Positions 9,480-60,929 of a DNA stretch of 64,000 bases are shown in pieces (positions within the stretch are counted from its first letter, which is position 1; every line of letters starts with the position of its first letter). The stretch comes from a bacterium (GTDB lineage Bacteria; UBP6; UBA1177). The translations under genes and the position numbers were made by a program. The stretch covers positions 1 through 64,000 of the forward strand of contig JAFYIZ010000035.1 of NCBI GenBank assembly GCA_017538365.1. Reading direction: 5' to 3'. The notes beneath the pieces were generated by a model that was not told the origin of the DNA, made no database searches, and saw only the letters and a program-made list of their open reading frames with translations.

Positions 9480-10658
9480 TCAAACGGTTTCTTTGTCTGT
9501 CAACCCCTGTTCAATCTCTTCAATTGTCGGTATCGTGCCTTCAACTTTTCCCGGGTAGATTTTGGCAAGTTCAAATTCAGATATTCCCAAAGGCTGGCTG
9601 CTTGACTCAAGGGAATATTGTGCGACCAGATTGTCTTTCTGCTTGCAGACTAAAAGCCCGATTGTAGGATTGTCGCGCCCCTCTTTTCGCAGAATATGAT
9701 TGCAGGAAACAACATAGCCTCCAAGCTGTCCTACATCAGCAAAATCAAATTCTCCGATTTTTACTTCAACCACCACATAACAGGAAAGATTGAGGTTGTA
9801 GAATAACAAATCTATGAATTTTTCTTTTTCACCTATCTGCAAACGGTATTCCTTGCCGACATAGGCAAAACCTGTTCCGAGTTCAAGCAGAAACTGCGTT
9901 ATATTGTCGAGCAGTGCATCCTTTAATTTTCGTTCGTTGTGTTTTGGCGTAATTCCGGTAAAGGCAAAATTATATGGATCTTTGGTAAGCTCCTGAGCCA
10001 ACCCGCTTGTTTCTTCAGGAAGAGTTTCTTTGAAGTTCGTTAAAGCCTTTCCTTGACGCTCATAAAGGTCTGTTCCGATAAAATTGAGCATCGTGTCTCG
10101 GCTCCAGCCGTTTAATATTGTCTGGTGAACGAAAAAGAGTGCTTTCCTTGGTTCAAATTTGAATTTATCAATCAAAATTGTGTGATGGCCCCACGGAATA
10201 GAAAAAATATCTCCGGCGATTCGCTCAGCAACTTGCTGAGTAAATTTCAAATTATCTAATTGCTCAACAACTTGTTGAGTAATTGCCTTGTTGTCTAATT
10301 GCTCCACAACTTGTGGAGTAATTGTTTTATCTGATTGCTCCTCAACTTGGGGAGCAATTTCCAAATACGACTGATAAAGCAGAAAAAAATTTTTCATATA
10401 CAAAAGATTGGTCTGAGAAAAGCAGGTGGCATCCGGGTTTTGAGCTTTTAAATCCATACTCAAATTTTTCATAAAACCGCTTCCCCATTTGCTTTCCGCT
10501 TTCTTGGTCACGATGTCTTTTCCCAAGCTGTAGTAAAACCGCAGCATTTCATCGTTTACCTTGAGTGCCGCTTTAATCTGACTTTTCCGGTAGCGGGAAG
10601 AAAGTTCCCTTATCCAGTTTTTATATTCCTTATCCAAAATGGTTATTGTTTTGCTCAT
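9480..10658 (-). CDS. YhcG/DUF1016-family PDDEXK nuclease, copy 1, with in-frame palindrome array
   Basis: 392 residues. Residues about 10-95 form the DUF1016 N-terminal helical domain, and about 265-370 the PDDEXK nuclease-like domain with FIDLLFYN and the E-V-K of VVVEVKIG. The family is widespread, often near mobile genes, and its function is not settled. Between the domains, residues about 102-145 are a 13-residue tandem repeat (TPQVVEQLDN-like), encoded by four palindromes at 10224-10354, just before IPWGHH (154-159). Related genes lie at 31470 and 32879. The gene is alone between convergent msrA and the toxin-antitoxin pair. The nuclease fold is recognised by motif only. Confidence 0.85.
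   Translation of the reverse strand: MSKTITILDKEYKNWIRELSSRYRKSQIKAALKVNDEMLRFYYSLGKDIVTKKAESKWGSGFMKNLSMDLKAQNPDATCFSQTNLLYMKNFFLLYQSYLEIAPQVEEQSDKTITPQVVEQLDNKAITQQVVEQLDNLKFTQQVAERIAGDIFSIPWGHHTILIDKFKFEPRKALFFVHQTILNGWSRDTMLNFIGTDLYERQGKALTNFKETLPEETSGLAQELTKDPYNFAFTGITPKHNERKLKDALLDNITQFLLELGTGFAYVGKEYRLQIGEKEKFIDLLFYNLNLSCYVVVEVKIGEFDFADVGQLGGYVVSCNHILRKEGRDNPTIGLLVCKQKDNLVAQYSLESSSQPLGISEFELAKIYPGKVEGTIPTIEEIEQGLTDKETV
10224..10358. repeat. Four tandem in-frame palindromes with compensatory arm changes
   Basis: The units start at 10224, 10263, 10302 and 10338 (spacing 39, 39 and 36). Each reads CTC-NN-CAACTTG-NN-GAG, and NN changes in matching pairs: AG/CT, AA/TT, CA/TG and CT/GG (the last with one wobble). 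Flanking bases also tend to mirror as AATTG/TAATT. Confidence 0.9.
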
Positions 10659-31469: not shown

Positions 31470-32618
31470 ATGAAGAAACACGAGAATCAAGCTATTTTAT
31501 TTGAAGCAGTACAGACGATAAAGACCGCGATACTGAAAAGTCAAGGTGACGCGGCAAGATCTGTAAATGAAAAGCAGTTATTGCTTTATTTTGGGGTTGG
31601 TAAATACATATCTCTAAATTCGAGATCGGGTTTTTGGGGAAAAGGAGCTATTGATGCCATAAGCAGTCAATTGGGCAGAGAGATGCCCGGGCTGAAAGGT
31701 TTTTCATCACGAAATCTAAGAAATATGCGAACTTTTTATGAAGAGTGGGCACTACTTGCCGGAGACAAGCAGGAACAGATATCCTCGAAAAATCTCTCTG
31801 GAAAGGCTGAACTGCAAATTTGGCAGACGCGTCTGCCAAATTCCGACATTTTTTCCAGAAATGAGTTTTTTAACATCAGCTTTTCACATCACACGCTCAT
31901 TTTGTCCAAAATAAAAAATTACGACGAGCGGATATTTTATATAAGGCTGGCAGCGGCAGAAAAACTCAGCCACGATGAACTGAAAATCAGAATCATTTCA
32001 GACGATTATCACCATCGCAGCATACTGCCGAACAATTTTGGGGAAACATTTTCCGAGTCGGAGCAGGCTTTTCGTGCAATAAATATGTTCAAAGACGAAT
32101 ATCTGCTTGATTTTATCAATGTTGAGCAACTCGGAATCCGTGACAATCAGGATATTGATGAAAAAGTCTTGGAAAATGCCATTGTTCACAATGTTAAAAA
32201 CTTTATTTTGTCGTTCGGCAAAGATTTCGCATTTATAAGAAACCAGTATCACATTGATGCTTTTGGCGAGGATCAATACATTGATCTCTTGTTCTTCAAC
32301 CGTGAACTGAATTGCCTTGTTGCAGTAGAACTTAAAAGCGGCAGATTCAAAACCTCATATTTGGGTCAGCTTTTCGGATATCTCAGCGTTCTCGATGAAT
32401 TCGAGAAAAAGCCGCATGAAAACCCCTCCATCGGAATCATTTTATGCAAAGATATGAATAAATCGTTTGTTGATTTTGTAATTCGAGATTATACGAAACC
32501 AATGGGGGTCGCCACTTACAAAACATCAAAAGATATGCCGGATAAACTGAAAAAAGCTTTGCCGGATATTGATGATTTAAGGAAATTGCTGGAATCAAAT
32601 GAAAAGAAAGAAGGCTAA
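31470..32618 (+). CDS. YhcG/DUF1016-family PDDEXK nuclease, copy 2
   Basis: 382 residues. N-terminal DUF1016 domain about residues 5-95; PDDEXK domain about 240-360 with YIDLLFFN and the E-L-K of VAVELKSG. It diverges strongly from copy 1 outside these motifs. A perfect 26-base palindrome at 31817-31842 encodes residues 116-125, just before ISFSHH (136-141), the equivalent of IPWGHH in copy 1. I see no Shine-Dalgarno before the ATG, unlike most genes here. It lies 260 bases upstream of copy 3, same strand. Confidence 0.83.
   Translation: MKKHENQAILFEAVQTIKTAILKSQGDAARSVNEKQLLLYFGVGKYISLNSRSGFWGKGAIDAISSQLGREMPGLKGFSSRNLRNMRTFYEEWALLAGDKQEQISSKNLSGKAELQIWQTRLPNSDIFSRNEFFNISFSHHTLILSKIKNYDERIFYIRLAAAEKLSHDELKIRIISDDYHHRSILPNNFGETFSESEQAFRAINMFKDEYLLDFINVEQLGIRDNQDIDEKVLENAIVHNVKNFILSFGKDFAFIRNQYHIDAFGEDQYIDLLFFNRELNCLVAVELKSGRFKTSYLGQLFGYLSVLDEFEKKPHENPSIGIILCKDMNKSFVDFVIRDYTKPMGVATYKTSKDMPDKLKKALPDIDDLRKLLESNEKKEG
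31817..31842. repeat. Perfect 26-base palindrome inside nuclease copy 2
   Basis: Thirteen-base arms, AATTTGGCAGACG and its exact complement, with no spacer. Chance expectation of a perfect 13-base-arm palindrome in 64 kb is about one in a thousand. Confidence 0.93.
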
Positions 32619-32660: not shown

Positions 32661-32707
32661 AAGTCGCAATTTGTGACCTTGAACCCATTCCCCAAATAAA
32701 TTCAGGC
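32661..32707. repeat. Palindrome plus conserved tail, copy A
   Basis: GTCGCAA-T-TTGTGAC (one mismatch) followed by CTTGAACCCATTCCCC and AAATAAATTCAGGC. Copies B (34070-34116) and C (63005-63050) share the tail while the palindrome arms differ. Confidence 0.8.
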
Positions 32708-32878: not shown

Positions 32879-34048
32879 ATGAAAGTTGTTGAATTAGAAA
32901 AGTTAAAAGAAAACATTAAGGACACCCGACTTGGAGCCGCGCCATCCCAAGTCGAGTTGTTCAAAGATGCCTGCACGATTATTGAACAGGCTCAGACAGT
33001 TGCATATCGGGCTATCAATGAAACCCTTATCAAGCGTAACTGGCTTTTAGGTCTGAGGATTCAGCATGAAGTTTTGAAGGGCAAACGTGCCGAATACGGT
33101 GAAAAAGTTATAAAAATGTTGGCAAAAGATTTGGTAAAGCGTTTTGGAAACGGTTTCAGTAAGGCAAACCTTTACCATTTTACAGCATTTTATAATTGCT
33201 TTCCGGACATTTTCTACGCAGTGAGTAGAAAATCTGAAACTATTCCGGCGATAACAAAACTTACTTATACAGCCGACTTATATGAACAGATTCAAACTTC
33301 TCGAACTATATGTCTTTCTTGGACTCATTACCGGATACTTTTGCAGGAATCCGATCCCGATGCCAGAATATGGTATGAAAATGAAGCTGCAAATGAAATA
33401 TGGAGTACCCGTACTTTGCAGCGGAATATATCATCACAGTATTATCACAGGATGCTTTTGTCTCAGAACAAATCTGTCGTTCGTGATGAAATGAAGAAAC
33501 TGACCGGTCATTTGCAGGACAAACTGGAATATTTGAAAAATCCGGTCATTGCTGAATTTCTCGGATTCAAGAACAAAACCGAATATTCAGAGAGTTCCTT
33601 GGAACAAAGCATCATAGACCATTTGATATCGTTTCTTATGGAATTGGGGAAAGGCTTTGCGTTTGTTGACAGACAAAAACACATTCACACAGAAAAGCAG
33701 GATTATTATTTGGATTTGGTGTTCTACAATTATTATTTGCGCTGTTTTGTTCTTGTTGATTTAAAAACGACAAAATTGAGTTATCAGGATGTCGGTCAGA
33801 TGGATATGTATGTAAAAATATACGATGAACTTGTACGGCCGGAAGGTCACAATCCGACAATAGGTCTCTTGCTTTGTGCCGATACCGATGAAGATGTAGC
33901 TCATTATTCTGTTTTAAGCAGCAACGACCAGCTTTTTGCAGCAAAATATCTGACTTATATGCCGACAAAAGAGGAACTGCGCCGAGAAATAGAGCAACAG
34001 AAGGAATTTTTCAGATTGCAATGCAAGGAAAATAAAGATAAAGAATAG
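32879..34048 (+). CDS. YhcG/DUF1016-family PDDEXK nuclease, copy 3
   Basis: 389 residues. N-terminal DUF1016 domain about 25-110 and PDDEXK domain about 250-370, with YLDLVFYN and D-L-K (VLVDLKTT) in place of E-x-K, a conservative change. Two inverted repeats sit in frame: CGACTTGG / CCAAGTCG (32927-32954, residues 17-25) and ATTTTCTAC / GTAGAAAAT (33209-33233, residues 111-119). The second again precedes the aromatic-x-His motif, LSWTHY (146-151). GGAG supports the ATG. Third family member in 25 kb. Confidence 0.83.
   Translation: MKVVELEKLKENIKDTRLGAAPSQVELFKDACTIIEQAQTVAYRAINETLIKRNWLLGLRIQHEVLKGKRAEYGEKVIKMLAKDLVKRFGNGFSKANLYHFTAFYNCFPDIFYAVSRKSETIPAITKLTYTADLYEQIQTSRTICLSWTHYRILLQESDPDARIWYENEAANEIWSTRTLQRNISSQYYHRMLLSQNKSVVRDEMKKLTGHLQDKLEYLKNPVIAEFLGFKNKTEYSESSLEQSIIDHLISFLMELGKGFAFVDRQKHIHTEKQDYYLDLVFYNYYLRCFVLVDLKTTKLSYQDVGQMDMYVKIYDELVRPEGHNPTIGLLLCADTDEDVAHYSVLSSNDQLFAAKYLTYMPTKEELRREIEQQKEFFRLQCKENKDKE
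32927..32954. repeat. Inverted repeat near the start of nuclease copy 3
   Basis: CGACTTGG and CCAAGTCG, eight-base arms, 12-base GC-rich loop, in frame. Confidence 0.75.
33209..33233. repeat. Inverted repeat before the W-x-H motif of nuclease copy 3
   Basis: ATTTTCTAC and GTAGAAAAT, perfect nine-base arms, seven-base loop, in frame. Confidence 0.8.
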
Positions 34049-59921: not shown

Positions 59922-60929
59922 ATGGAAGAAGTCAGCAAGACAAATGAAATCGTTTTTTATCAGACTGAAAATTCTGATGTGGTCGTAAATGTAGTGTTTA
60001 AAGACGAGACCTTCTGGCTCACGCAGAAGGCAATGGCGGCATTGTTCGATGTTAATTCGCAGGCTATCACAAAACATCTTGCGAATATTTATGAAGATCT
60101 GGAATTAGAGAAATCGGCAACCTGTTCCATTTTGGAACAAGTTCAAAAAGAAGGGAACCGCAGTGTCAAACGCTCGCTTGAGTTTTATAATCTCGATGCA
60201 ATAATTGCCGTCGGTTACCGCGTAAATTCCAAAAAAGCCACAAAATTCCGCCAGTGGGCGACAAAAACATTGAGGGAATACATCACCAAAGGTTTTGTAA
60301 TCAACGAAAAGATGTTGAAAAACGGAAAGCCGTTCGGGAAAGACTATTTCGATGAACTTCTTGAAAAGATTAGGGAAATCCGTGCAAGCGAAAGGCGTGC
60401 CTACCAGAAAATCACTGATATTTTCGAGCAGTGCAGCTGCGATTTCGACAAAGAGAGCGAAACTACCAAAGAATTTTATGCTTTCGTGCAGAACAAACTT
60501 CATTTTGCGGTTAGCGGAAAAACTGCGGCAGAACTTGTTTACAACCGTGCTGACGCAAAGAAAGAGCACATGGGTCTGACTAACTGGAAAAATTCTCCCG
60601 ACGGAAAAATCTATAAATCTGATGTCACGATTGCGAAAAATTATCTGAACGAGAAGGAAATCTCACGATTGAACCGCCTTGTCACCATGTTCATTGACTA
60701 TGCTGAACTTCAGGCTGAAGACGGAAATCTGATGAGAATGCAGGACTGTGTCGATGCCGTGAATATGTTTTTGCAGAGCACACGCCAGCAGATCCTCGAA
60801 TCAAAAGGGAAAATCAGCCACGATCAGGCAGTCGAAAAAGCTCTCGGTGAATATGAGATTTTCCGAATAATTCAGGACAGGGAATATATTTCGGAATTCG
60901 ACAGACAAACTAAAAATCTGAAAAAGTAA
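59922..60929 (+). CDS. RhuM-family protein
   Basis: 335 residues. The N-terminal half carries the RhuM signature: FWLTQKAMAALFDV, ITKHLANIYEDLEL, YNLDAIIAVGYRVNS and FRQWATKTLREYI. The C-terminal half is helical (FYAFVQNKLHFAVSG). The family was named in a Salmonella island as a virulence protein but is widespread among mobile genes, with an unknown biochemical role. The palindrome at 60123-60139 falls in the part that varies between family members (SILEQVQKEG). GGAG supports the ATG. An RNA ligase gene follows 17 bases later. Confidence 0.85.
   Translation: MEEVSKTNEIVFYQTENSDVVVNVVFKDETFWLTQKAMAALFDVNSQAITKHLANIYEDLELEKSATCSILEQVQKEGNRSVKRSLEFYNLDAIIAVGYRVNSKKATKFRQWATKTLREYITKGFVINEKMLKNGKPFGKDYFDELLEKIREIRASERRAYQKITDIFEQCSCDFDKESETTKEFYAFVQNKLHFAVSGKTAAELVYNRADAKKEHMGLTNWKNSPDGKIYKSDVTIAKNYLNEKEISRLNRLVTMFIDYAELQAEDGNLMRMQDCVDAVNMFLQSTRQQILESKGKISHDQAVEKALGEYEIFRIIQDREYISEFDRQTKNLKK
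60123..60139. repeat. Palindrome inside the RhuM gene
   Basis: TGTTCCA-TTT-TGGAACA, perfect seven-base arms, in frame, in the variable segment of the RhuM N-terminal half. Confidence 0.75.

What the first reader, a model, noticed from the sequence alone, without database searches (positions are those of the whole stretch)
10224..10358. Four tandem in-frame palindromes with paired base changes in one nuclease gene
Repeats of 39, 39 and 36 bases keep the frame (13 or 12 codons). Within each, CTC-NN-CAACTTG-NN-GAG has NN pairs AG/CT, AA/TT, CA/TG and CT/GG. Three of four are exact complements, the last has one wobble. Protein repeats alone would not predict complementary changes on both sides of the centre.
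Basis: seen in the sequence. Interest (0 to 1): 0.8.

Follow-up and report, generated by a model that had tools for sequence, protein, structure and literature searches.

The report
Covarying palindromes inside a bacterial nuclease gene
Genes for a widespread bacterial DNA-cutting protein (YhcG, also in E. coli K-12) carry, at one fixed spot inside the coding sequence, a roughly 27-letter mirror-image DNA motif whose two halves change together over evolution, so the DNA symmetry is kept even at the cost of changing the protein, for a reason nobody has yet explained.

Summary
In detail: four in-frame palindromes with matched arm changes lie in a YhcG/DUF1016 (PDDEXK) nuclease gene (9480-10658, minus strand). 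In 160 distinct YhcG genes from at least seven phyla, the best palindrome of the whole gene lies in the interdomain linker in 149, though that linker is about 10% of the gene. Scores average 9.65, against 4.55 after synonymous-codon shuffling. With the centre fixed beforehand, arms pair in 86-96% of genes at positions 3, 5, 7 and 9, with several pair types; random re-pairing never reached this. Copy number is 1-6. One 25-bp palindrome is read in two different frames in genes from two phyla. E. coli K-12 yhcG has three in-gene copies and one just past its stop; another lies 8.3 kb upstream, and an allele lacking yhcG keeps a single palindrome. The noncoding copy shows a paired G-to-C/C-to-G change. 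Two other mobile-gene families, RhuM and ORF6N, carry their own in-gene palindromes. This is a DNA-level cis element, not just a protein repeat. Best guess: the gene product's own recognition site; function untested. Rivals: self-correcting palindromes (template switching), RPE-like insertions.

The parts
9480..10658 (-). YhcG/DUF1016 nuclease gene (392 aa): DUF1016_N (residues 19-201 as matched) and YhcG_C PDDEXK domain (222-376)
   Evidence: Pfam PF17761 E 2.2e-30 and PF06250 E 1.4e-54; PADLOC PDC-S02 candidate defence E 1e-147
10224..10240 (.). palindrome 1 CTCAGCAACTTGCTGAG (encodes TQQVAE on the - strand), nearest to the C-terminal domain
10258..10284 (.). palindrome 2 AATTGCTCAACAACTTGTTGAGTAATT (TQQVVE)
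10297..10323 (.). palindrome 3 AATTGCTCCACAACTTGTGGAGTAATT (TPQVVE)
10334..10358 (.). palindrome 4 ATTGCTCCTCAACTTGGGGAGCAAT (APQVEE), one wobble
31470..32618 (+). second YhcG homologue in the window
31817..31842 (.). perfect 26-bp palindrome AATTTGGCAGACGCGTCTGCCAAATT in the linker of the second YhcG; its arms match one of the E. coli yhcG palindromes
32879..34048 (+). third YhcG homologue in the window
33209..33233 (.). palindrome ATTTTCTACGCAGTGAGTAGAAAAT in the linker of the third YhcG
59922..60929 (+). RhuM-family gene (PF13310), a different family with its own in-gene palindrome class
60119..60143 (.). palindrome AACCTGTTCCATTTTGGAACAAGTT in the RhuM gene
   Evidence: (L257)

Best explanation
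The palindrome is a DNA-level cis element built into the coding sequence of YhcG nucleases, in the disordered linker between the N-terminal helical domain and the PDDEXK domain. Shown here: fixed location, arm complementarity kept through paired changes, noncoding copies near the same genes, and persistence at a site without the gene. Inferred: each palindrome is the recognition site of the gene's own product, probably bound as a symmetric dimer or as an extruded hairpin. Binding in the gene, and before or after it, would let the nuclease control its own expression and give a place where DNA carrying yhcG is gained, lost or exchanged. Half-sites drift with the protein, which is why the arms differ between species but stay symmetric.
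For: Fixed place: in 149 of 160 genes the best palindrome of the whole gene is in the linker; 9 of 9 readable viral-contig YhcG genes found afterwards agree, at 0.25-0.33 of the gene. Not set by the protein: synonymous shuffling halves the score, and each synonymous base on one arm faces a non-synonymous base on the other, so paired changes alter amino acids (PQLVEE, PQTAGQ, RQQPVDD, QTLSGE). Covariation with the centre fixed in advance. Both strands equivalent: G.T and A.C mismatches are equally common, 20 and 26 at arm positions 2-8. The same 25-mer is read in two frames in genes of two phyla. Sequence specificity: half-sites agree at 5.3 of 7 positions within a gene against 2.6 between genes (tandem duplication could also cause this). 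Noncoding copies with the same core lie next to YhcG genes in E. coli, Clostridia, Rhodococcus and Pseudanabaena. E. coli: K-12 has palindromes 14 bp after gltD and 16 bp after yhcG, 8.3 kb apart, and strain 4/1-1 without yhcG has one palindrome between gltD and nanQ. RhuM and ORF6N genes have their own palindrome classes.
Against: No binding data exist and no solved structure is similar. Half-site similarity is not tied more closely to the N-terminal domain than to the nuclease domain: partial rank correlations 0.18 and 0.23. Within one gene, palindromes differ at positions that still pair, which a simple tolerant half-site does not explain. Most genes have no detectable flanking copy within 250 bp: 17 of 151 upstream and 23 downstream have any palindrome scoring 9 or more, and not all of those are of the family type.
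Confidence: 0.42

Rival explanations
1. Self-perpetuating palindrome without function. Replication template switching in a quasipalindrome copies one arm onto the other, so a mismatch is corrected in one event. An ancient palindrome in a tolerant linker would then persist and covary by mutation bias alone.
For: Quasipalindrome-associated template-switch mutation is known in E. coli (PMC7202029). It gives paired changes and no strand bias. The linker is modelled as disordered, pLDDT below 50 at residues 102-142. K-12 has one A.C mismatch where the O157 allele is a perfect palindrome.
Against: It does not explain why the same position carries a palindrome in YhcG across phyla, why RhuM and ORF6N have their own classes while other genes in a 743-kb sample have almost none, why extra noncoding copies sit next to YhcG genes, or why outer AATT and centre bases are conserved while the stem varies.
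Confidence: 0.22
2. Mobile coding palindrome of the RPE kind that keeps inserting in frame into linkers of these genes.
For: Coding palindromes that insert in frame are known (RPE, reviewed in PMC10969869). An identical 25-mer occurs in two frames in two phyla. Tandem copies and solo intergenic copies exist.
Against: Copies are hardly dispersed: the window's core pattern occurs only in this gene, and the GGCAGAC pattern gives one place per genome in 2 of 118 genomes. Half-sites drift gradually with protein identity, as expected for inheritance, not repeated insertion. Centres sit at codon position 1 in 184 of 193.
Confidence: 0.15
3. mRNA hairpins that regulate translation or bind the nuclease, as in RNA-antitoxin systems.
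For: The mRNA strand folds better than shuffles, z -5.9; tandem hairpins resemble type III antitoxin arrays.
Against: No excess of G.U over A.C on the mRNA strand, 20 against 26; in the window the wobbles lie on the other strand, which folds better, z -9.1. Noncoding copies occur downstream of the stop and at a site without the gene.
Confidence: 0.12
4. Only a protein repeat: a helical linker motif ([PQ]Q[LV]V) tandemly duplicated, palindromic by chance of codons.
For: Gln-Leu or Gln-Val codons (CAA CTT, CAA GTT) are themselves nearly palindromic; the linker peptide is recognisably similar across the family.
Against: Synonymous shuffling removes the palindrome, and amino acids change in step with the opposite arm; noncoding copies exist; one palindrome is read in another frame.
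Confidence: 0.03

Closest known systems
Rickettsia palindromic elements (RPE), Wolbachia and Methanocaldococcus coding palindromes
   Same: Palindromic DNA inside protein-coding genes, in frame, in unstructured protein regions
   Different: RPEs are about 100-150 bp and dispersed over unrelated genes (PMC4316617, PMC10969869). Here: about 25-27 bp, one place per family, single-locus, found across phyla, arms covary
PARCEL (palindromic amphipathic repeat coding elements, DUF285)
   Same: Tandem coding repeats with dyad symmetry, mobile-gene association, unknown role of the symmetry (PMC2996958)
   Different: Different protein family and 75-nt repeat; imperfect symmetry; the paper does not mention DUF1016, YhcG or RhuM. 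Here a single palindrome is the ground state
REP elements with RAYT transposases
   Same: Short palindromes associated with a nuclease-type protein
   Different: REPs are extragenic and in high copy (PMC3733652 abstract); here few copies and mainly inside the coding gene
Quasipalindrome correction by template switching
   Same: Gives paired changes in inverted repeats
   Different: A mutation process; does not by itself explain family-specific position

Membership tests
YhcG/DUF1016 PDDEXK nuclease | DUF1016_N plus YhcG_C domains above curated cut-offs | tested here: met
   106 and 184.7 bits against cut-offs 32.8 and 32.5
YhcG/DUF1016 PDDEXK nuclease | nuclease activity | not testable with these tools
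   no biochemical data; catalytic-type residues D283, E298 and K300 are invariant in A2
Rickettsia palindromic element | dispersed copies in many unrelated genes of a genome | tested here: not met
   window pattern only in this gene; related pattern one place per genome
Rickettsia palindromic element | in-frame palindrome in a coding gene | tested here: met
PARCEL | 25-residue DUF285-type repeat | tested here: not met
   repeat is 12-13 residues; Pfam finds only DUF1016_N and YhcG_C
REP/RAYT | many extragenic copies | tested here: not met
   few copies, mostly intragenic
own-product binding site (autoregulatory operator) | binding by the encoded protein | not testable with these tools
   needs EMSA or ChIP
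own-product binding site (autoregulatory operator) | copies with the same half-site near the gene's ends | tested here: inconclusive
   clear in E. coli, clostridial, Rhodococcus and Pseudanabaena loci, absent in most
RNA hairpin under selection | excess of G.U over A.C mismatches on the transcribed strand | tested here: not met
   20 G.T against 26 A.C at arm positions 2-8

The most novel reading that the evidence does not exclude
YhcG, RhuM and ORF6N proteins each recognise a palindrome that is written into their own coding sequence, and these sites act as attachment or exchange points by which the genes move into and out of restriction and defence operons: a self-addressed class of mobile defence genes.
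Probability: 0.2. Interest if true: 0.93.

Novelty: new variant of a known kind. Interest (0 to 1): 0.78.

Why it matters
YhcG is a very common candidate phage-defence nuclease with no known mechanism, present in E. coli K-12. A symmetric DNA site kept inside its coding sequence across phyla, even where that forces amino-acid changes, is a direct handle on what the protein recognises. It also bears on two open questions: what coding palindromes are for, and how accessory genes get into restriction-modification and BREX operons.

Tried and rejected
Viral-contig scan for two spaced CAAGTTG units: mostly chance matches in unrelated proteins. Dispersed-element idea: pattern searches in 118 and 5 genomes gave long-armed matches only at YhcG genes. 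RNA-hairpin idea: no wobble bias. Domain-swap idea: apparent N-terminal replacement in E. coli ET210 and EBJ001 is truncation by insertion sequences; N- and C-domain identities are broadly concordant. Linking half-sites to the N domain: no preference. Structure model and fold search: model mean pLDDT 59, no significant PDB match. PDB sequence search: no relative. Papers: nothing found on palindromes in yhcG, DUF1016 or RhuM.

Full report
WHAT IS THERE. The window's minus strand encodes a 392-aa YhcG/DUF1016 protein (9480-10658), a candidate defence nuclease (PADLOC PDC-S02). Its linker is encoded by four tandem units of 39, 39 and 36 bp spacing. Each carries an in-frame palindrome CTC-NN-CAAGTTG-NN-GAG, in three of them extended to 25-27 bp. 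The pattern exists nowhere else in the genome.

ORTHOLOGUES. Sister species have 3 units (G009, G013) and 2 (a remnant in G007), with different NN pairs, mostly complementary; one G009 unit (AA/TG) is not. A genome scan and other searches gave relatives in Spirochaetota, Bacteroidota, Bacillota, Pseudomonadota, Cyanobacteriota, Actinomycetota, Deinococcota and Wolbachia phage WO. Nearly all carry one or more palindromes at the same place, although the encoded peptide differs: PQLVEE, PQTAGQ, RQQPVDD, PQVGVD, QQVAED, QTLSGE. The two other YhcG genes in the window have them too (31817-31842, 33209-33233).

STATISTICS. I took 160 distinct genes. Palindrome score is paired bases minus twice the mismatches. 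In 149 of 160 the best palindrome of the whole gene is centred in the linker, which is 10% of the aligned length. The mean linker score is 9.65; synonymous shuffling gives 4.55, and the rest of the gene 5.1 (N side) and 5.9 (C side). Fifteen linkers have no palindrome scoring 7 or more, so the feature is general but not universal. In 166 distinct palindromes aligned on the centre, pairing is 96-98% at arm positions 3, 5, 6 and 7, with all four pair types seen; outer AATT and the centre are conserved. Those palindromes were chosen by score, so I repeated the test without that bias: 56 genes with a short linker and a centre fixed by linker length. Pairing was 48, 40, 52, 47, 54, 51 and 48 of 56 at positions 3-9; the maxima of 2000 re-pairings were 32, 27, 34, 28, 34, 39 and 31. 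Re-pairing does not correct for relatedness; 27 representatives below 50% identity gave the same picture, and a held-out set of 9 viral-contig genes agreed.

DNA, NOT PROTEIN. The centre is at codon position 1 in 184 of 193. The third codon base of one arm then faces the second base of a codon in the other, so every compensation changes an amino acid. An identical 25-mer is read as LPQLVAK in a Bacteroidales gene (L090) and SATTCGK in a spirochaete gene (L009), in different frames. G.T and A.C mismatches are equally frequent, 20 and 26, so there is no sign of RNA wobble on the mRNA strand.

OUTSIDE THE GENE. Palindromes with the same core lie 16 bp after the stop of K-12 yhcG, at the stop and 16 bp before the ATG of clostridial yhcG genes, and near Rhodococcus and Pseudanabaena genes. 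Most genes lack a detectable flanking copy. In E. coli, K-12 and strain 2021CK-00607 differ in the noncoding copy by a paired change, TGCAGACAGTGTCTGCA to TCCAGACACTGTCTGGA, in an otherwise identical flank, while the linker is far more divergent than the rest of the gene. K-12 also has a palindrome 14 bp after gltD. The segment gltF-yhcADEF-yhcG thus lies between two palindromes 8.3 kb apart, and strain 4/1-1 has gltD, one palindrome, nanQ. This fits recombination between the two; whether it is a gain or a loss is not known, and only one such strain was read in full (a 37-base query gave matches in many others).

OTHER FAMILIES. In a 743-kb sample of the genome, 15 ORF palindromes score 10 or more; they fall mainly in YhcG, ORF6N, Bro-N and a RhuM-like stretch. 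RhuM (21 genes: best 8.8, second best 5.9, shuffled 4.4) and ORF6N (14 genes: 12.9, 7.4, 4.5) each have their own palindrome class at about one fifth to one quarter of the gene. The ORF6N set is small because half the loci were not parsed, and several members are close relatives.

MECHANISM. Shown: location, symmetry kept by paired change, noncoding copies. Inferred: recognition by the gene's own product. In favour is the sharing of half-sites within a gene and with flanking copies. Against is the lack of a link to one protein domain. Template-switch correction of a functionless palindrome is the strongest rival; it explains the covariation but not the fixed place or the family-specific classes. 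I put 0.42 on the self-site and 0.22 on template switching.

WHAT IS KNOWN. Coding palindromes are known as RPEs (dispersed, 100-150 bp; PMC4316617, PMC10969869) and PARCELs (DUF285 repeats; PMC2996958). Neither is this. I found no report on YhcG, RhuM or ORF6N; the library holds only open-licence papers.

Noticed in passing
window 60119-60143; L244-L272: RhuM-family genes carry a different in-gene palindrome class (AACTATCCGGAATTTCCGGATAGTT and similar, arms covarying) at about one fifth of the gene.
   Followed up: partly
L290, L298, L303, L304, L314-L326: ORF6N-domain genes carry 25-31 bp palindromes (TTTTTGAGGTCGCAAATTGCGACCTCAAAAA and similar) inside the ORF6N domain; 7-18 ORF6N matches in many of the genus's genomes.
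   Followed up: partly
L286:19177-19208: A Bro-N (DinD-like) gene has a 32-bp palindrome CGACCATTTTGCCGAGGTCGGCAAAATGGTCG.
   Followed up: no
L299:18991-19017; L283:7970-7992; L213 downstream; L287:796-826: Solo intergenic palindromes of YhcG or ORF6N type, some probably remnants of lost genes; the palindrome seems to outlast the gene.
   Followed up: partly
L165 (Aeromonas veronii plasmid): The yhcG gene lies between two methyltransferase genes with the same protein accession, as if the operon part had been duplicated around it.
   Followed up: no
L162 (Methylomonas koyamae plasmid): yhcG sits between pglX and pglZ of a BREX operon.
   Followed up: no
L144 against L242: The yhcG linker in E. 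coli is strongly diverged while flanks of the gene stay nearly identical, as if only the linker had been exchanged.
   Followed up: partly
L090:4041-4559; L096:469-497; window near 32700: GTAGAGACG...CGTCTCTAC palindromes, in several copies in L090, look like GTAG-tagged REP elements.
   Followed up: no
L007/L100 (G013), L006 (G009), L038 (G007): Orthologues of the window gene in sister species are broken by frameshifts or stops or reduced to a 101-aa remnant; the window copy is open throughout.
   Followed up: no
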